Shown: piece by piece, positions 39,849-47,378 of the stretch
Layout: every line of letters begins with the position of its first letter
Position numbering within the stretch: the first letter of the stretch is position 1
Assembly (NCBI RefSeq): GCF_000764535.1
Contig: NZ_CP009571.1
Span: 3,782,001-3,846,000 of the forward strand
Reading direction: 5' to 3'
From: Sphingomonas taxi
Lineage (GTDB): Bacteria; Pseudomonadota; Alphaproteobacteria; Sphingomonadales; Sphingomonadaceae
DNA length: 64,000 nucleotides
Program-made: the position numbers and the translations under genes
Notes under the pieces: generated by a model
Databases searched by the model: none
What the model was told of the DNA's origin: nothing
Seen by the model: the letters and a program-made list of their open reading frames with translations, nothing else

Positions 39849-40001
39849 GTCCGCAGCGATACCAAATTTCCGATTTCCGGGCCAGTCCATCCTGCGAAGG
39901 GGTCATTACGACGCTATATTAGGGAATGGGTGCTGACGTATTGGTCAATTTATGCGTGACACGGCGCTTCTTCCTGCGTAGCGACGCGGGAAGGAGGCCC
40001 C

Positions 40002-41435
40002 ATGGCGCACGATTCCATGCTTAAGTTCGTCGGCCGTCAGCAGGCCTATCCCGCGAAGCGGGCACCCCAGGCGCGTGCCGAGGACTTCGCCGAGATCGCC
40101 GCGCGCTATGCAGCGCCGGCCGCGGAGGATCAGGCGGGGCGCTGCTCGCAATGCGGCGTGCCTTATTGCTCGGTGCATTGCCCGCTGCACAACCACATTC
40201 CCGACTGGCTGCGGCTGACCGCCGAGGGGCGGCTGCGCGAGGCGTACGAGCTGTCAAACAGCACCTCGACCATGCCCGAGATCTGCGGCCGCATCTGCCC
40301 GCAGGACCGTTTGTGCGAGGGCAATTGCGTGATCGAATTCACCGGCCACGGCGCGGTGACGATCGGCTCGGTCGAGAAGTTCATCACCGACACCGCCTGG
40401 GAAGAGGGTTGGGTCGAGCCGCTGGTGCCGGGGCCGGCGCGCGGGCAGTCGGTGGCGGTGATCGGCGCCGGTCCGGCCGGGCTGACCGCGGCGGAATACA
40501 TGCGCGGCCACGGCTATGAGGTCCATGTCTACGACCGGCACGATCGCGCCGGCGGGCTGCTGACCTATGGCATCCCCGGCTTCAAGCTCGAGAAGCCCGT
40601 CGTCATGCGCCGCGTCGACCGGCTCAAGGCGGGCGGCATCGTCTTCCACGAAGGCTTCGGCGTCGGTGAGCAGGCGAGCCTCGACGATCTGCGTCGCGAG
40701 CATGACGCGGTGCTGATCGCGACCGGCGTCTACAAGGCGCGCGCGCTCGACGTCGCCGGTGGTGACGACGGCCGCGTGGTGGCGGCGCTCGATTTCCTGA
40801 TCGCGTCGAACCGCAAGGGCTTCGGCGACGCGGTGCCGGCGTTCGACGAGGGCGGGCTCGATGCGGCGGGCAAGCACGTCGTCGTGATCGGTGGCGGCGA
40901 TACCGCGATGGACTGCGTCCGTACCGCGATCCGCCAGGGCGCGGCGTCGGTGAAATGCCTCTACCGCCGCGACCGCAAGAACATGCCGGGCAGCCAGCGC
41001 GAGGTCACCAATGCCGAGGAGGAGGGCGCCGACTTCGTCTGGCTCTCCGCCCCGGCGGCGTTCGACAGCGACGGCACGGTGCGCGCGCGCAAGATGCGTC
41101 TGGGTGCGCCCGATGCGAGCGGTCGCCGCGCGCCGGAAGCCGATCCGAGCGGCGACTTCACGCTGAAGGCCGATCTCGTCATCAAGGCGCTGGGCTTCGA
41201 CGCCGAGGATCTGCCAGCGCTGTTCGGCGCGCCCGAACTTGGCGTCAGCCGCTGGGGGACGGTGTTGGTCGACGGCAAGACGCTGATGACCAGCCTCGAC
41301 GGCGTGTTCGCGGCGGGCGACATCGTCCGTGGCGCGAGCCTCGTCGTCTGGGCGATCCGCGACGGCCGCGACGTCGCGGCGACGATGCACAAATGGCTCA
41401 AGGCGAAGGCAAAGGCGGGAAAGGTCGCGGCGTGA
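40002..41435 (+). CDS. gltD: Glutamate synthase, small (beta) subunit
   Basis: 477 residues; a strong AAGGAGG precedes ATG 40002. Fe-S cysteines lie in CSQCGVPYCSVHCPLHN and CGRICPQDRLCEGNC. FAD site GAGPAGLTAAEYM, NADPH site GGGDTAMDCVRTA, and the closing FAAGDIVRGASLVVWAI complete the fold. It passes electrons from NADPH to the large subunit for conversion of glutamine plus 2-oxoglutarate to two glutamates. Its stop overlaps the start of the toxin-antitoxin pair, which separates it from gltB. The 153-nt upstream region contains TATATT (39916) as a possible -10 box. Confidence 0.96.
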   Translation: MAHDSMLKFVGRQQAYPAKRAPQARAEDFAEIAARYAAPAAEDQAGRCSQCGVPYCSVHCPLHNHIPDWLRLTAEGRLREAYELSNSTSTMPEICGRICPQDRLCEGNCVIEFTGHGAVTIGSVEKFITDTAWEEGWVEPLVPGPARGQSVAVIGAGPAGLTAAEYMRGHGYEVHVYDRHDRAGGLLTYGIPGFKLEKPVVMRRVDRLKAGGIVFHEGFGVGEQASLDDLRREHDAVLIATGVYKARALDVAGGDDGRVVAALDFLIASNRKGFGDAVPAFDEGGLDAAGKHVVVIGGGDTAMDCVRTAIRQGAASVKCLYRRDRKNMPGSQREVTNAEEEGADFVWLSAPAAFDSDGTVRARKMRLGAPDASGRRAPEADPSGDFTLKADLVIKALGFDAEDLPALFGAPELGVSRWGTVLVDGKTLMTSLDGVFAAGDIVRGASLVVWAIRDGRDVAATMHKWLKAKAKAGKVAA

Positions 41436-41731
41436 GACTGACCGCGGACGAGGTGCAGGCGATCAAGGCGGCCGCCGTCGAAGCGTTCGGCGCATCCGCC
41501 GTCGTGCGCCTGTTCGGCAGCCGGGTGGACGATGCCAAACGTGGTGGCGATATCGACCTGCTGATCGAGGCGCCGGCGGATCGGATCGGGATCGTCCATG
41601 AGTCGCGATTTCTGTCCGACCTGTTCCGGCGGATCGACGAGCGCAAGGTCGATGTGGTGTTGACCCAACAGGGTCAGCCATTGCCGCCGTTCGCTGCGAT
41701 GGTCGCGCAACATGCGGTGCCGCTCCCATGA
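41432..41731 (+). CDS. mntA: MNT-domain nucleotidyltransferase antitoxin (MntA type)
   Basis: 99 residues from GTG 41432, which overlaps the gltD stop (GTGA). It is a minimal nucleotidyltransferase: RLFGSRVDD followed by GGDIDLLIE gives Gly29-Ser30 and Asp40-x-Asp42, the GSx9-10DxD motif of active MNT enzymes. In HepT/MntA (type VII) systems this protein AMPylates a Tyr of the HEPN toxin and silences it. Here the toxin follows directly with a 4-nt overlap. No upstream promoter is possible without entering gltD, so it depends on glt transcription. Confidence 0.88.
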   Translation: MRLTADEVQAIKAAAVEAFGASAVVRLFGSRVDDAKRGGDIDLLIEAPADRIGIVHESRFLSDLFRRIDERKVDVVLTQQGQPLPPFAAMVAQHAVPLP

Positions 41732-42201
41732 CGGACACCGAGGTCTTTATCGGTCGCACACTCGCCCGCTGTCGCAGGGTTGCGGCGGGCGCGGAGGAAC
41801 TGGTGCCGCTGCTGGCTGGCGTGATGCCGTTCGGTGGCGAGGATCTCGCCGCGTTAAACCTGATGCAACGCACGGCGGCGACCGCATTCCTGAAACGGTT
41901 CGAACAGCTTCAGGATCTGATCGCCCGCGCGGTGCGCGCGATCGCGGGCTGGACGGGCGTCGACGCCGGGTCGATGACCCATCGCGACATCGGCGATTGG
42001 CTGGAGAAGCATGCGCTCGTGTCCGACGCCGAATCCTGGATGGTGGCGGTGCGCCTGCGCAACCGGCTCGTCCACGAATATCCGATCGAAGAGCAAGAAC
42101 AGGTGCGGCGGCTCAACGAAAGCTGGGCCACGATGCCCCTGCTGCGCACCATCACCGACAATCTCGGCGCTTATGCCGAAGGGAAGGGCCTGCCGTCATG
42201 A
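41728..42201 (+). CDS. hepT: HEPN-domain toxin (HepT type)
   Basis: 157 residues from ATG 41728, overlapping the mntA stop. It is all-helical with the HEPN RNase motif in LRNRLVHEY: Arg111-x4-His116-x-Tyr118, exactly the Rx4HxY of HepT toxins, where the Tyr is the AMPylation target. HEPN toxins cleave RNA (mRNA or tRNA). Its own stop overlaps the gltB start (ATGA). Whether the toxin is active in this genome is unknown, but all motif residues are intact. Confidence 0.88.
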   Translation: MTDTEVFIGRTLARCRRVAAGAEELVPLLAGVMPFGGEDLAALNLMQRTAATAFLKRFEQLQDLIARAVRAIAGWTGVDAGSMTHRDIGDWLEKHALVSDAESWMVAVRLRNRLVHEYPIEEQEQVRRLNESWATMPLLRTITDNLGAYAEGKGLPS

Positions 42202-45200
42202 CCGACGCCCATGATCCGATGAAGACTGACCAGCGTGCCTATCTCGCGGAACACGGCATGTACCGTCCCGACAGCGAGGGCGATGCCTGCGGCGTCGGCC
42301 TCGTCGCCGCCACTGACGGTCGTGCGTCGCGGCGCGTCGTCCAGTCGGCGGTCGATGCGCTGAAGGCGGTGTGGCACCGCGGCGCGGTCGATGCCGACGG
42401 CAAGACCGGCGACGGCGCCGGCATCCATATCGACCTGCCGCACCGCTTCTTCGACGATGCGGTCGTCGCGAGCGGCCACAAGGTGCTGCCCAACCGGCTC
42501 GCGGTCGGCATGATCTTCCTGCCGCGCACCGATCTCGGCGCGCAGGAGAATTGCCGCACGATCGTCGAGAGCGCGATCATCGAGGCGGGCTATACGATCT
42601 ACGGCTGGCGACAGGTGCCGGTCGACGTGTCGGTGATCGGCCTCAAGGCGCAGACGACGCGGCCCGAGATCGAGCAGATCATGATCGCCGGCCCGTTGCC
42701 CGACGACGTCTCCGCCGCCGAGTTCGAGAAGAACCTGTATCTCGTCCGCCGCCGCATCGAGAAGCGCGTCATCGCCGCGCAGATCCAGGGTTTCTACGTC
42801 TGTTCGCTTTCGTGCCGCTCGATCGTCTACAAGGGGCTGTTCCTCGCCGAGAGCCTGTCGGTCTTCTATCCCGACCTGCAGGATCAAAGGTTCGAATCGC
42901 GCGTCGCGATCTTCCACCAGCGCTATTCAACCAACACCTTCCCGCAATGGTGGCTGGCGCAGCCGTTCCGCTGCCTTGCGCACAATGGCGAGATCAACAC
43001 GATCCGCGGCAACAAGAACTGGATGCTCAGCCACGAGATCCGGATGGCGAGCCTCGCGTTCGGCGACAATTCGGAGGACATCAAGCCGGTGATCCCGGCG
43101 GGCGCGTCCGACACCGCCGCGCTCGACGCGGTGTTCGAGGCGATCTGCCGTTCGGGCCGCGATGCGCCGACCGCCAAGCTGATGCTCGTCCCCGAGGCGA
43201 CCGGTGCGGACACGCCGCCCGATCACGCCGCGATGTATAATTATCTCGCCTCGGTGATGGAGCCGTGGGACGGCCCCGCCGCGCTGGCGATGACCGACGG
43301 CCGCTGGGCGGTGGCGGGCGTCGACCGCAACGCGCTGCGGCCGCTGCGCTATACGCAGACCTCGGACGGGCTGCTGATCGTCGGCTCGGAGACCGGCATG
43401 GTCGTCGTCCCCGAATCGACCGTCGTCGCCAAGGGTCGGCTCGGGCCGGGCCAGATGATCGCGGTTGACCTCGACGCAGGCCGGGTGCTCGGCGACCGCG
43501 AGGTCAAGGACCGGATCGCCGCGGAGCACGATTATCCCGCGATGATCGGCGAATTCCATACGCTCGACGACCTGCCCGAGGTCGCCGAGGCGGTGGTCCG
43601 TTTCGATCGGCCCGCGCTCGCGCGCCGGCAGGTCGCCGCCGGCCAGACGCTGGAGGATATGGAGCTGATCCTGTCGCCGATGGTCGAAACCGCGAAAGAG
43701 GCGATCGGCTCGATGGGCGACGATACGCCGCTCGCCGTCATTAGCGACAAGCCGCGTCTCATCAGCCAGTTCTTCCGCCAGAATTTCAGCCAGGTCACCA
43801 ACCCGCCGATCGATCCGCTGCGCGAGCGCTACGTCATGTCGCTGCGCACGCGGTTCGGCAATCTCGCCAATATCCTCGACACCGAGGATCAGCGCGATCG
43901 CGTGCTGGTGCTCGATTCGCCGGTGCTCACCGGCCAGCATTGGGCGCGGCTCAAGGCGCATTTCGCGCGCACCGCGACCGAGATCGACTGCACCTTCGAC
44001 GCGGAGGGCGGCCCGGAAAAGCTGCGCGCCGCGATCCAGCGCATCCGCAACGAGGCGGAGCAGGCGGTGCGGCAGGGCAAGAGCGAGCTGTTCCTGACTG
44101 ACGAGCACGTCTCCGAAGACCGGATCGCGATCGCCGGCGTGCTGGCGGCGGCGGCGGTGCATACGCATCTCGTCCGTCGGGGGCTGCGCTCCTATGCCTC
44201 GATCAACGTCCGCTCGGCGGAATGTCTCGACACGCATTATTACGCGGTGCTGATCGGCGTCGGCGCGACGACGGTGAACGCCTATCTCGCCGAGGCGGCG
44301 ATCGTCGACCGGCAGGCACGCGGCCTGTTCGGCGACTTGTCCTTGGACGAATGCCTCAAGCGCCATCGCCATGCGATCGAGGAGGGGCTGCTCAAGATCA
44401 TGAGCAAGATGGGGATCGCGGTGATCTCCTCCTATCGCGGCGGCTATAATTTCGAGGCGGTCGGCCTCTCGCGCAGCCTCGTCAACGACCTGTTCCCCGG
44501 CATGCCCGCCAAGATCTCGGGCGAGGGCTATAATTCGCTGCACCACAGCGCGCTCGTCCGCCACGAACTGGCCTGGGACGAGGGCGTGGCGAAGCTGCCG
44601 ATCGGCGGCTTCTACCGCCAGCGCCACACCGGCGAGACCCACGCCTATTCGGCGCAACTCATGCACCTGCTCCAGACCGCGGTGTCGACCGACAGCTATA
44701 CCAGCTATCTGCAATTCAGCCGCGGTGTCGCCGATCTGCCGCCGGTCTATCTGCGCGACCTGCTCCAGTTTAATTTCCCGAGCGAGGGCGTGCCGGTCGA
44801 TCAGGTCGAGGCGATCACCGAGATCCGCAAGCGTTTCGTCACCCCGGGCATGTCGCTGGGCGCGCTCAGCCCCGAGGCGCACGAGACGCTGGCGATCGCG
44901 ATGAACCGCATCGGCGCCAAGGCGGTGTCGGGCGAGGGCGGCGAGGATGTGAAGCGCTTCAAGCCCTATGAGAATGGCGACAACGCCAATTCGACGATCA
45001 AGCAGATCGCGAGCGGCCGGTTCGGCGTCACCGCCGAATATCTCAACGCCTGCGAGGAGATCGAGATCAAGGTCGCGCAGGGCGCCAAGCCCGGCGAGGG
45101 CGGCCAGTTGCCCGGCTTCAAGGTGACCGAGTTCATCGCCAAGCTGCGCCATGCGACGCCGGGCGTGACGCTGATCTCGCCGCCGCCGCACCATGACATC

Positions 45201-46724
45201 TATTCGATCGAGGATCTCGCGCAGCTCATCTACGACCTCAAGCAGATCAACCCGCGCGCGCGCGTCTGCGTCAAGCTGGTCAGCTCGTCGGGGATCGGCA
45301 CCGTCGCCGCTGGCGTCGCCAAAGCCCACGCAGACGTCATCCTGATCGCCGGCCATGTCGGCGGCACCGGCGCGAGCCCGCAGACCAGCGTCAAATATGC
45401 CGGCACGCCGTGGGAGATGGGCCTCAGCGAGGTCAACCAGGTGCTGACCCTCAACGGCTTGCGCGGCCGGGTGCGGCTGCGCACCGACGGCGGGCTCAAG
45501 ACCGGGCGCGACATCGTCATCGCCGCGATCCTCGGCGCCGAGGAATATGGTATCGGCACGTTGAGCCTCGTCGCGATGGGCTGCATCATGGTGCGCCAGT
45601 GCCATAGCAACACCTGCCCGGTCGGCGTCTGCACGCAGGATCAGGCGTTGCGCGACAAGTTCGTCGGCACGCCCGAGAAGGTCATCAACCTGATGACCTT
45701 CATCGCCGAGGAGGTGCGCGACATCCTCGCCCGGCTCGGCGTCAGGAGTCTCGACGAAGTGATCGGCCGCACCGAATTCCTGCGTCAGGTCAGCCGCGGT
45801 GCCGAGCATCTGGACGATCTCGATCTCAACCCGATCCTCGCCAAGGTCGATGCGACCGACGCCGAGCGCCGCTTCTCGCTGTCGACCTTCCGCAACGAGG
45901 TCCCCGACAGTCTCGACGCGCAGATCATCAAGGATGCCGCGGCGGTGTTCAGCCGCGGCGAGAAGATGCAGCTCACCTATTCGGTGCGCAACACGCATCG
46001 CGCGGTCGGCACGCGGCTGTCGAGCGAGGTCACCCGCCGTTTCGGGATGAGCAAGCTCGCCGACGGCCACGTCACCGTCCGGCTGCGCGGGAGCGCCGGG
46101 CAGAGCCTCGGGGCCTTCATGTGCAAGGGCATCACGCTCGAAGTGTTCGGCGACGCCAACGATTATGTCGGAAAGGGCCTTTCGGGCGGCATCATCGTGC
46201 TCCGCCCGGCGGTGTCCTCGCCATTGGCGAGCCAGGACAATACGATCCTCGGCAACACCGTGCTCTACGGCGCGACCTCGGGGACGCTGCTCGCCGCGGG
46301 GCAGGCGGGCGAGCGGTTCGCGGTGCGCAATTCGGGCGCGACGGTGGTGGTCGAGGGCTGCGGCGCCAACGGCTGCGAGTATATGACCGGCGGCGTCGCG
46401 GTGCTGCTCGGCCGCGTCGGGCAGAATTTCGGCGCGGGCATGACTGGCGGCATGGCCTTCGTCTACGATCCCGACGGCGAGTTCGCGCAGCGCGCCAATC
46501 CGGAGAATATCGTCTGGCAGCGGCTCGCCTCGGCGCATTGGGAGGGCGTGCTGCGCGACCTCGTCGAGCGGCATGCCAATGCTACGGACAGCAAATGGTC
46601 GAAGGGTCTGCTCGCCGACTGGGAGCGGATCGCCGGCGATTTCTGGCAGGTCGTGCCGAAGGAGATGCTGTCGCGGCAGACCTATCCGCTGGACGATTCG
46701 GTGGAACTGGTCGCGGCGGAGTGA
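42198..46724 (+). CDS. gltB: Glutamate synthase, large (alpha) subunit
   Basis: 1508 residues from ATG 42198; the open frame to 41712 overlaps the toxin gene and is not used. After a short propeptide the class II glutaminase Cys31 (DACGVGLV) becomes the N-terminal nucleophile. The central FMN/2-oxoglutarate domain has the 3Fe-4S cysteines in CIMVRQCHSNTCPVGVC. The C-terminal GXGXG beta-helix domain includes GANGCEYMTGGVAVLLG. With GltD it forms NADPH-dependent glutamate synthase in the cytoplasm. Translation is probably coupled to the toxin gene ahead of it. Confidence 0.97.
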   Translation: MTDAHDPMKTDQRAYLAEHGMYRPDSEGDACGVGLVAATDGRASRRVVQSAVDALKAVWHRGAVDADGKTGDGAGIHIDLPHRFFDDAVVASGHKVLPNRLAVGMIFLPRTDLGAQENCRTIVESAIIEAGYTIYGWRQVPVDVSVIGLKAQTTRPEIEQIMIAGPLPDDVSAAEFEKNLYLVRRRIEKRVIAAQIQGFYVCSLSCRSIVYKGLFLAESLSVFYPDLQDQRFESRVAIFHQRYSTNTFPQWWLAQPFRCLAHNGEINTIRGNKNWMLSHEIRMASLAFGDNSEDIKPVIPAGASDTAALDAVFEAICRSGRDAPTAKLMLVPEATGADTPPDHAAMYNYLASVMEPWDGPAALAMTDGRWAVAGVDRNALRPLRYTQTSDGLLIVGSETGMVVVPESTVVAKGRLGPGQMIAVDLDAGRVLGDREVKDRIAAEHDYPAMIGEFHTLDDLPEVAEAVVRFDRPALARRQVAAGQTLEDMELILSPMVETAKEAIGSMGDDTPLAVISDKPRLISQFFRQNFSQVTNPPIDPLRERYVMSLRTRFGNLANILDTEDQRDRVLVLDSPVLTGQHWARLKAHFARTATEIDCTFDAEGGPEKLRAAIQRIRNEAEQAVRQGKSELFLTDEHVSEDRIAIAGVLAAAAVHTHLVRRGLRSYASINVRSAECLDTHYYAVLIGVGATTVNAYLAEAAIVDRQARGLFGDLSLDECLKRHRHAIEEGLLKIMSKMGIAVISSYRGGYNFEAVGLSRSLVNDLFPGMPAKISGEGYNSLHHSALVRHELAWDEGVAKLPIGGFYRQRHTGETHAYSAQLMHLLQTAVSTDSYTSYLQFSRGVADLPPVYLRDLLQFNFPSEGVPVDQVEAITEIRKRFVTPGMSLGALSPEAHETLAIAMNRIGAKAVSGEGGEDVKRFKPYENGDNANSTIKQIASGRFGVTAEYLNACEEIEIKVAQGAKPGEGGQLPGFKVTEFIAKLRHATPGVTLISPPPHHDIYSIEDLAQLIYDLKQINPRARVCVKLVSSSGIGTVAAGVAKAHADVILIAGHVGGTGASPQTSVKYAGTPWEMGLSEVNQVLTLNGLRGRVRLRTDGGLKTGRDIVIAAILGAEEYGIGTLSLVAMGCIMVRQCHSNTCPVGVCTQDQALRDKFVGTPEKVINLMTFIAEEVRDILARLGVRSLDEVIGRTEFLRQVSRGAEHLDDLDLNPILAKVDATDAERRFSLSTFRNEVPDSLDAQIIKDAAAVFSRGEKMQLTYSVRNTHRAVGTRLSSEVTRRFGMSKLADGHVTVRLRGSAGQSLGAFMCKGITLEVFGDANDYVGKGLSGGIIVLRPAVSSPLASQDNTILGNTVLYGATSGTLLAAGQAGERFAVRNSGATVVVEGCGANGCEYMTGGVAVLLGRVGQNFGAGMTGGMAFVYDPDGEFAQRANPENIVWQRLASAHWEGVLRDLVERHANATDSKWSKGLLADWERIAGDFWQVVPKEMLSRQTYPLDDSVELVAAE

Positions 46725-46728
46725 CGGA

Positions 46729-47115
46729 TCAGAGCGCGGACCGGATATCGGTCCGCGCGAAATCCTCGCCTTTGTAGAGCAAGGGCGCGTCGAGTGCTTT
46801 GGCGATCGCATAGACCATGCAGTCGCCGAAATTCAGCCGGGCCGGCCGGCCGCCGAAGCGCGTATATGCCTCGCATGCGATCACCAGATGCTGTTCGGTC
46901 CAGTCGACGAGGCGGATAATGCCGTGACTGAATAACGGCACCGCGAGGCGTTTGTCATCCGGCGTTACTCGCCGGCTGAGCACAAGATGGACCTCAAGCG
47001 CGGTGGGTGCTGGCATGATCGCCTCGTCGGCGCTTGCAATGGCTCGCAGGAAGCGGTCGGCATCCGGCTCTTCCAACGCGATGGCGACCAGCGCCGACGC
47101 GTCGACGACGATCAT
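46729..47115 (-). CDS. vapC: VapC-type PIN-domain RNase toxin
   Basis: 128 residues from ATG 47115, overlapping the antitoxin stop. PIN acidic residues are all present: Asp5 (VVDASALVAI), Glu41 (PTALEVHLVL), Asp98 (NFGDCMVYAIA) and Asp118 (YKGEDFARTDI). VapC toxins cut tRNA or rRNA. Its stop is 4 nt from the convergent gltB stop, so the pair sits right against the glt operon. Confidence 0.93.
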   Translation of the reverse strand: MIVVDASALVAIALEEPDADRFLRAIASADEAIMPAPTALEVHLVLSRRVTPDDKRLAVPLFSHGIIRLVDWTEQHLVIACEAYTRFGGRPARLNFGDCMVYAIAKALDAPLLYKGEDFARTDIRSAL

Positions 47116-47378
47116 TTCGGCAGGCCGTCCGCGTCGTACAGCATCTCGTCCGGGGATCGGTCGTCGAGTACCGGCAGAGTGCGGATATGCGCCTGCAGTT
47201 TGCGGACGTCGTCCAGCCACGCCAGCCGTTCCGGCGACAGGCGCGCCCGTAGGTCCAACTCCTTAGAGAGTTCGCCGAGCATCACCTGTCCGACAATATC
47301 GGCCGGAGTCTGCCCACGCAGCTCCGACAGTTGATGGATCGCGTGTTCGACATCGGGCCGATCGATCTGGATATCCAT
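47112..47378 (-). CDS. vapB: VapB-type antitoxin
   Basis: 88 residues from ATG 47378 (AGAGGTGA about 8 nt upstream). It overlaps vapC by 4 nt in the usual antitoxin-first order. Sequence looks like the Rv0623/PSK-type antitoxins that have an N-terminal helix (DVEHAIHQLSELRGQTPADIV) and an acidic C-terminal tail that binds VapC (PVLDDRSPDEMLYDADGLP). The much longer open frame up to 48302 is a shadow of the GST and CsaA genes. Confidence 0.85.
   Translation of the reverse strand: MDIQIDRPDVEHAIHQLSELRGQTPADIVGQVMLGELSKELDLRARLSPERLAWLDDVRKLQAHIRTLPVLDDRSPDEMLYDADGLPK

What the first reader, a model, noticed from the sequence alone, without database searches (positions are those of the whole stretch)
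41432..42201. HepT/MntA-type toxin-antitoxin pair embedded between gltD and gltB
Seen: gltD, an MNT nucleotidyltransferase, a HEPN protein and gltB follow in one direction, each junction a 4-nt overlap (GTGA, ATGA, ATGA). The MNT keeps GSx9DxD and the HEPN keeps Rx4HxY. Known: in the HepT/MntA (type VII) system MntA AMPylates the Tyr of Rx4HxY to silence the RNase. Inference: the pair has no room for its own promoter and must be translated whenever glutamate synthase is. It may therefore be domesticated, and it could tie toxin control or ATP/AMPylation state to ammonia assimilation. I know of no described case of this arrangement.
Basis: partly seen in the sequence, partly recalled or inferred. 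Interest (0 to 1): 0.82.

Follow-up and report, generated by a model that had tools for sequence, protein, structure and literature searches.

The report
Swappable toxin-antitoxin cassette inside gltDB operon
Between the two genes of the ammonia-assimilating enzyme glutamate synthase, some Sphingomonas species carry a small toxin-antitoxin-like gene pair whose version differs sharply between close relatives, so a core metabolic operon seems to double as a docking site for a fast-changing selfish or defensive element.

Summary
In detail: gltD, a 99-aa MNT nucleotidyltransferase, a 157-aa HEPN protein and gltB overlap by 4 nt at each junction. The arrangement recurs: 42 of 295 genus genomes hold this HEPN (E<=1e-8, one match each). 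All 42 copies lie upstream of gltB on its contig, 40 within 130 bp, 41 with gltD upstream. Motif residues are invariant while the rest diverges. But the pair is no stable part of the operon. In 117 genus genomes the junction holds only DUF2059-type genes (68), at most 100 bp (28), an intact or decayed pair (19), or unclassified DNA (2). Relatives with 94-98% identical gltD carry HEPNs only 30-48% identical, or none, and one breakpoint lies inside mnt. Elsewhere, relatives are mostly free-standing pairs. Best reading: an AMPylation-controlled HEPN-MNT toxin-antitoxin cassette, co-translated with glutamate synthase and exchanged by recombination through its conserved flanks. Control of nitrogen assimilation is possible but unsupported. 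Toxicity, AMPylation and co-transcription are untested.

The parts
39849..40001 (+). intergenic stretch upstream of gltD; presumed operon promoter region
   Evidence: between the end of bacA/uppP (39848) and the gltD start (40002); promoter location is inferred, no sigma-70-like match found
40002..41435 (+). gltD, glutamate synthase small subunit
   Evidence: TIGR01318 484 bits, cut-off 482.95
41432..41731 (+). mnt: 99-aa minimal nucleotidyltransferase, presumed antitoxin; GTG start overlaps gltD stop by 4 nt
   Evidence: PF01909 21.0 bits; fold matches HI0073 and a solved MNT antitoxin; 41-59% identical to 17 genus homologs at the same site
41516..41557 (+). MNT active-site motif GS-x9-DxD (residues 29-42)
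   Evidence: G29, S30, D40, D42 invariant in 25 and in 52 chosen sequences
41651..41653 (+). third acidic residue of MNT, D74
   Evidence: invariant
41728..42201 (+). hep: 157-aa HEPN protein, presumed RNase toxin; ATG overlaps mnt stop by 4 nt; no Shine-Dalgarno match
   Evidence: fold model pLDDT 95.3, best PDB matches HEPN/HepT toxins and HI0074; anti-SD energy -1.4 kcal/mol versus median -2.3 for other ATG/GTG in the region
41905..41916 (+). HEPN Q60-x2-D63, conserved polar pair; possible metal site (guess)
   Evidence: nearly invariant in 67 chosen sequences; likeness to Q44/E47 of the Legionella HEPN is by spacing only (PMC11586414, passages), not by alignment
42058..42081 (+). HEPN motif R111-x4-H116-x-Y118; Y118 is the presumed AMP acceptor
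   Evidence: R111, L114, H116, Y118 invariant in 26 and in 67 chosen sequences
42198..46724 (+). gltB, glutamate synthase large subunit; ATG overlaps hep stop by 4 nt
   Evidence: NF008730 1686 bits, cut-off 1047

Best explanation
The pair is a HEPN-MNT toxin-antitoxin cassette of a short-MNT branch (MNT 97-100 aa in 18 genus genomes, GSx9DxD) that sits in an exchange-prone docking site between gltD and gltB of Sphingomonadaceae. Shown here: order, overlaps, motif conservation, predicted folds, recurrence at one site, allele and cargo swapping, pattern of decay. Inferred: the cassette is transcribed from the glt promoter; the antitoxin is made first; in the window the toxin is made mainly by re-initiation at the 4-nt overlap; MNT uses ATP to add AMP to Tyr118 of HEPN and so silences a ribonuclease. 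New alleles or a DUF2059 gene enter by homologous recombination through the conserved gltD and gltB flanks, sometimes through the conserved first half of mnt, so that the toxin moves with the second half of its antitoxin. The carrier operon gives steady co-expression and penalises imprecise deletion. The benefit is more likely self-maintenance or phage defence than control of glutamate synthase.
For: Location: 42 HEPN carriers among 295 genus genomes, all upstream of gltB on the same contig and strand, 40 within 130 bp (G686 623 bp, G021 812 bp); 41 have gltD on that contig, the 42nd (G009) is split by a contig end. Function kept: R/L/H/Y and GS..DxD invariant at 21-48% (HEPN) and 41-59% (MNT) identity to the window, also in wider chosen sets. 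Swapping: G642 has gltD 98% and gltB 99% identical to the window but HEPN 48%, G637 96/99/30%, G734 94/97/39%; window versus S. melonis AS2.3 (L237) gltD 98%, gltB 99%, bacA 94%, HEPN 49% of the aligned part, with DNA identity 89-95% in gltD, 55-71% in the pair, 92-99% in gltB (100-nt bins, border bins 77 and 83). G029/G032, G117/G087, G010/G113, G018/G058/G070 differ in cargo with about 90-94% identical flanks. Mosaic: G037/G086 share gltD and about the first 140 nt of mnt, then fall to 50-86% until gltB. Distance correlations in 18 genomes: hep with mnt C-half 0.68, mnt N-half 0.35, gltDB 0.20. Pair and DUF2059 avoid each other: together in 3, with 19 and 71 carriers in 117, Fisher p 1.8e-5. 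Decay: MNT without recognised HEPN in 3 of 47 occupied family junctions, HEPN without MNT in 0 of 47 and 0 of 89. Elsewhere: 64 of 80 named loci do not have gltD and gltB beside them, and 48 of these 64 have a downstream ORF with Rx4HxY.
Against: No expression, toxicity or AMPylation data. Motif spacing differs by one from MntA, and the NCBIfam MntA/HepT cut-offs are not met. Strict site fidelity in this genus could instead mean a local function. Hep distances keep a weak vertical signal (r 0.20 with gltDB, Mantel p 0.018). In other alleles the Shine-Dalgarno match of hep is moderate (median -4.15 kcal/mol of 18), so toxin-by-re-initiation is not general. The toxin-first decay rests on 3 cases. 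PMC7641770 leaves the enzyme that would reverse AMPylation unknown (passage), so how the toxin is released is open.
Confidence: 0.62

Rival explanations
1. Domesticated regulator: MNT/HEPN senses ATP or nucleotidylates glutamate synthase (or HEPN cuts its mRNA), tying ammonia assimilation to cell state.
For: 42 of 42 copies found in the genus are at this operon with translational overlaps; nucleotidyltransferases GlnE and GlnD regulate nitrogen metabolism elsewhere (recalled, no call).
Against: 253 of 295 genus genomes lack it at E<=1e-8; close relatives have DUF2059 genes, a short junction or a very different allele. HEPN diverges far faster than gltDB (mean pairwise identity 0.33 versus 0.84 in 18 genomes). 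The same subfamily sits between nrdA and nrdB in one family genome (G158) and apart from glt in 64 of 80 named loci.
Confidence: 0.12
2. Neutral hot spot: the gltD-gltB junction tolerates coding inserts and the pair is a passenger with no function of its own.
For: Occupancy is common (89 of 117 in the genus, 47 of 63 in other genera of the family with this gene order) and switches often (32 three-state changes on 117 tips; shuffles mean 42, minimum 35).
Against: Two kinds of cargo account for 87 of 89 genus inserts and 44 of 47 family inserts (profiles only for these two were used, but unsupervised BLAST clustering of genus inserts gave the same two groups plus five single proteins). All recognised inserts are on the gltDB strand. 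Motif residues are invariant. HEPN without MNT was not seen.
Confidence: 0.12
3. Substrate-modifying enzyme: MNT plus HEPN as a split, kanamycin-nucleotidyltransferase-like enzyme acting on a small molecule, with HEPN as substrate-binding subunit (HI0073/HI0074 model).
For: PF08780 name and matches to HI0073/HI0074; MNT-HEPN fusions exist (L190, L246).
Against: Invariant Rx4HxY and the coupled turnover of HEPN with the MNT C-half fit a toxin and its cognate modifier better (inference).
Confidence: 0.08

Closest known systems
HepT/MntA type VII system of Shewanella oneidensis (SO_3166/SO_3165; PMC7641770, passages seen)
   Same: HEPN with RX4HXY and adjacent minimal nucleotidyltransferase with GS..DXD; folds alike
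   Different: here GSx9DxD; MNT 99 aa, no room for the long C-terminal helix alpha4; scores far below the NCBIfam cut-offs; embedded between gltD and gltB
Legionella pneumophila HEPN-MNT (PMC11586414, passages seen; PDB 8xeo, 8xeh, 8xdj, 8yuf)
   Same: short MNT lacking alpha4 that still poly-AMPylates its HEPN; among the best fold matches
   Different: reported motif GSX10DXD; RNase site there is a Mg site Q44/E47 and not RX4H; its genome setting was not looked at
HI0073/HI0074 of Haemophilus influenzae
   Same: MNT and HEPN folds, two-gene arrangement; the PDB proteins hit by the profiles at E<0.01 besides one chimera
   Different: sequence similarity marginal (E 0.003-0.005)
MNT-HEPN inserted in the lysine biosynthesis operon of Thermus thermophilus HB8 (PMC2701414, passages seen)
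   Same: an MNT-HEPN inside a biosynthetic operon, present in one strain and absent in another
   Different: one strain comparison; here a recurrent site in several genera with allele swapping and a second cargo type
Short-MNT/HEPN pairs away from glt in other bacteria (64 of the 80 named loci)
   Same: MNT relatives by tblastn; 48 of 64 have a downstream ORF with Rx4HxY, 40 of these with a 4-nt mnt/hep overlap
   Different: no gltD and gltB within the fetched flanks (16 of the 64 have short flanks); a same-strand upstream ORF overlaps mnt in 7, lies 1-150 bp away in 46, none in 11

Membership tests
HepT/MntA type VII toxin-antitoxin system | HEPN with RX4HXY | tested here: met
   present in the window; R, H, Y invariant in 67 chosen sequences
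HepT/MntA type VII toxin-antitoxin system | MntA with GSX10DXD | tested here: not met
   spacing is 9 in the window and in the aligned genus homologs; the catalytic residues themselves are conserved
HepT/MntA type VII toxin-antitoxin system | scores above NCBIfam NF047751/NF047752 cut-offs (60 bits) | tested here: not met
   18.2 and 16.1 bits
HepT/MntA type VII toxin-antitoxin system | HEPN toxic and neutralised by AMPylation of Tyr | not testable with these tools
   needs expression and mass spectrometry
MNT-HEPN two-gene modules (class I of PMC7641770: PF01909 with PF01934 or PF08780) | adjacent small MNT and HEPN genes | tested here: met
MNT-HEPN two-gene modules (class I of PMC7641770: PF01909 with PF01934 or PF08780) | Pfam gathering scores | tested here: inconclusive
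   PF01909 at 21.0 with cut-off 21; PF08780 and PF01934 below cut-off for the window protein; several close homologs carry PF08780 in the database, e.g. P0003, P0005
MNT-HEPN two-gene modules (class I of PMC7641770: PF01909 with PF01934 or PF08780) | folds of both partners | tested here: met
   predicted models; Foldseek probability 0.99-1.00 for the ten best matches of each, among them solved MNT and HEPN chains; E-values modest (1.7e-4 and 3.2e-3 at best)
MNT-HEPN two-gene modules (class I of PMC7641770: PF01909 with PF01934 or PF08780) | patchy, mobile distribution | tested here: met
   42 of 295 genus genomes; scattered on the gltDB tree

The most novel reading that the evidence does not exclude
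The gltD-gltB junction is a family-wide docking locus for polymorphic toxin-antitoxin alleles: the antitoxin's C-terminal half and the toxin form an allele-specific unit that is exchanged through the conserved operon, so that carriers of different alleles are mutually incompatible (diversifying phage defence or a kin-type incompatibility), with glutamate synthase serving as addiction anchor and expression platform. A second anchor of the same kind may be nrdA-nrdB.
Probability: 0.2. Interest if true: 0.82.

Novelty: new variant of a known kind. Interest (0 to 1): 0.62.

Why it matters
Toxin-antitoxin modules are usually seen as free-standing or on mobile elements. Here a fast-diverging one is, in the 295 genus genomes held, found only inside one core metabolic operon and is exchanged there allele by allele. 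If true, it shows how such modules can persist without mobility genes, offers natural near-identical flanks with different alleles (window, G642, G637, G734) to test cognate specificity, and warns that glutamate synthase operons may hide toxin genes.

Tried and rejected
Recent random insertion: rejected, because the pair uses this site in 42 genus genomes and in 4 of 63 other family genomes of this gene order, with 3 more holding MNT only. Strictly vertical inheritance: rejected, because hep distances hardly follow gltDB and the nearest relatives carry other alleles or other cargo; note that 14 binary state changes are within the range of shuffled labels, so there is only weak clade signal either way, while the three-state count (32) is below all shuffles, so there is some. 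Internal promoter: scan negative but uninformative, since a sigma-70 consensus is a poor guide in an alphaproteobacterium. Metal-site likeness to the Legionella HEPN (Q44/E47 versus Q60/D63): left as a guess; the distance to the R of RX4HXY differs by 3 and no residue alignment was made. Phage-defence link: MNT hits PADLOC candidate family PDC-S09 (E 7.7e-7) while HEPN hits nothing there; suggestive only. DUF2059 label: Pfam was run on four insert proteins only, three above the cut-off, one (G057) not; the rest are called by clustering and by a profile built from that cluster, so the 68 are DUF2059-type by similarity. Rows dropped: G000 and G010 were left out of the 63-genome family count because they belong to the genus; G009 was left out of the 117 (contig break) and of the alignments; alignments A5 and A6 use a hand-picked subset of the 101 and 120 listed hits. 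Literature: searches returned nothing; some searches returned lists in which I saw no title on a glt-linked HEPN-MNT; only three papers were opened, by passages.
Full report
What is there. gltD 40002-41435, mnt 41432-41731, hep 41728-42201 and gltB 42198-46724 run in one direction with 4-nt overlaps GTGA, ATGA, ATGA. gltD and gltB are ordinary glutamate synthase subunits. The MNT protein just reaches the Pfam NTP_transf_2 cut-off (21.0 bits); the HEPN protein is below the cut-offs of PF08780 and PF01934, and both are far below the NCBIfam MntA and HepT cut-offs. Predicted folds support the identification: the MNT model (mean pLDDT 91.8) matches HI0073 (E 1.7e-4) and a solved MNT antitoxin (TM 0.73), and the HEPN model (95.3) matches solved HEPN/HepT toxins (TM 0.64-0.69, E 3e-3 at best) and HI0074.

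Is it recurrent? A single-sequence search of 121 genus genomes gave 19 HEPN carriers including the window's own. tblastn on the fetched loci showed mnt in 19 of 19, gltB beside 19 and gltD beside 18; the exception is G009, whose contig ends there. A profile search of 295 genus genomes gave 42 carriers at E<=1e-8, one match each (only the 12 best first-look candidates per genome were scored). For the 23 new ones gltB and gltD were located. In all 42, HEPN lies upstream of gltB on the same contig and strand, within 130 bp in 40; in G021 and G686 it is 812 and 623 bp away. In 21 of the 23 new ones the gltD match ends about 300 bp before HEPN, room for mnt; in G759 and G769 it is 436 and 861 bp. 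Of 18 junctions inspected in detail the gltD/mnt overlap is 4 nt in 17 (in G042 a DUF2059-type gene intervenes), the mnt/hep overlap is 4 nt in 18, and a start giving a 4-nt hep/gltB overlap exists in 12.

What else sits there. In 117 genus genomes with gltD and gltB on one contig (118 of 121 have each; G009 is split), the matches are at most 100 bp apart in 28, and 89 carry an insert. By profile, 68 inserts hold only DUF2059-type genes (secreted-looking; PF09832 confirmed by Pfam for three of four tested), 16 hold MNT+HEPN, 2 hold DUF2059 then MNT+HEPN (G042, and G067 whose mnt and hep are both broken), 1 holds MNT+HEPN then a DUF2059-type gene (G021), 2 are unclassified. In the wider family, 63 of 127 non-genus genomes, from 47 genera, have this gltD-gltB type: 16 have at most 150 bp and 47 an insert, namely 37 DUF2059-type only, 4 MNT+HEPN with or without DUF2059, 3 MNT without a recognised HEPN, 3 none of these. 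Of the MNT-only cases, G231 keeps a short HEPN remnant and G160 a truncated HEPN. HEPN without MNT was not seen. DUF2059 thus looks like the older cargo and the pair a sporadic alternative. Within the genus the two avoid each other (Fisher p 1.8e-5).

Swapping. On the gltD+gltB tree of 117 genomes the pair is scattered (14 changes for 19 carriers; shuffled labels mean 18, minimum 13). The nearest genus genomes by gltD differ in what they hold: G642 (98%), G637 (96%) and G734 (94%) carry the pair, with HEPN 48, 30 and 39% identical to the window; G008, G017 (95%) and G098 (93%) carry DUF2059-type genes; G106 (94%) has a 48-bp junction. No genus carrier has a HEPN above 49%, whereas G151 of another genus has 66% with gltB at only 77-80%, and metagenome proteins reach 92%. 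S. melonis AS2.3 (L237) has gltD 98%, gltB 99% and bacA 94% but HEPN 49% over the aligned part; along the DNA, identity is 89-95% in gltD, 55-71% in the pair and 92-99% in gltB, changing at the gene borders. G029/G032, G117/G087, G010/G113 and G018/G058/G070 differ in cargo with about 90-94% identical flanks. G037 and G086 share about the first 140 nt of mnt at 98-100% and then fall to 50-86% through the end of hep. Across 18 genomes hep distances follow the mnt C-half (r 0.68) better than the mnt N-half (0.35) or gltDB (0.20, Mantel p 0.018). Exchange at the same site, also across genera, is the simplest reading.

Outside. The other 64 do not show both flanks (16 have short flanks); 48 of them have a downstream ORF with Rx4HxY. 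In one family member (G158) the pair lies between nrdA and nrdB, 3 nt before nrdB. In two loci MNT and HEPN are one 296-aa frame (L190, L246).

Mechanism. By analogy with HepT/MntA, MNT would AMPylate the Tyr of RX4HXY (PMC7641770, passages). The window MNT is too short for alpha4, but an alpha4-less MNT from L. pneumophila still poly-AMPylates its HEPN, and there the RNase site is not RX4H (PMC11586414, passages). So the invariant Rx4HxY here is safer as an acceptor-site signal than as proof of RNase activity. The window's hep start has no Shine-Dalgarno match (-1.4 kcal/mol; other ATG/GTG in the region median -2.3), mnt -6.4 and gltB -8.0, which fits toxin translation by re-initiation after antitoxin; other alleles show moderate matches (median -4.15), so this is not general. 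The few MNT-only remnants and the absence of lone HEPN fit a toxin that needs its antitoxin. None of toxicity, AMPylation or co-transcription was tested.

Verdict. Ordinary in its parts, unusual in its setting: a short-MNT variant of HEPN-MNT modules that, in the genus genomes searched, lives only inside the glutamate synthase operon as an exchangeable cassette. A precedent for operon insertion exists (T. thermophilus lysine operon; PMC2701414), but none for this recurrent, allele-swapping docking site was seen in the searches made.

Noticed in passing
window 46729-47360, minus strand: A vapBC-like pair (PIN domain PF01850 71 bits; PSK_trans_fac PF07704 30 bits) lies right behind gltB and convergent with it; the two genes overlap by 4 nt.
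   Followed up: partly
gltD-gltB junctions of 68 of 117 genus genomes, e.g. L054, L085: DUF2059-type secreted-looking proteins, one to three copies, occupy the same junction; why such a protein is encoded inside glutamate synthase operons is unknown.
   Followed up: partly
own genome, contig 1, 2351540-2352074 (L002, L188): A second MNT/HEPN pair with the canonical GSx10DxD and a strong PF08780 match (113 bits), distinct from the glt pair.
   Followed up: partly
L337 (G158), nrdA-nrdB: The same MNT-HEPN subfamily between the two ribonucleotide reductase genes, after a small ORF and 3 nt before nrdB.
   Followed up: partly
L190 and L246: MNT and HEPN fused in one 296-aa frame.
   Followed up: no
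L139 (G021): A fragment matching gltB residues 10-45 sits after hep, followed by a DUF2059-type gene and then intact gltB: a possible footprint of insertion with duplication of the gltB start.
   Followed up: no
L122 (G067): DUF2059-type gene followed by a broken mnt and a broken hep: a decaying pair.
   Followed up: partly
L179/L187 (G309): gltD, an mnt, a hep split over two frames, gltB: perhaps another decaying hep, or an assembly error.
   Followed up: no
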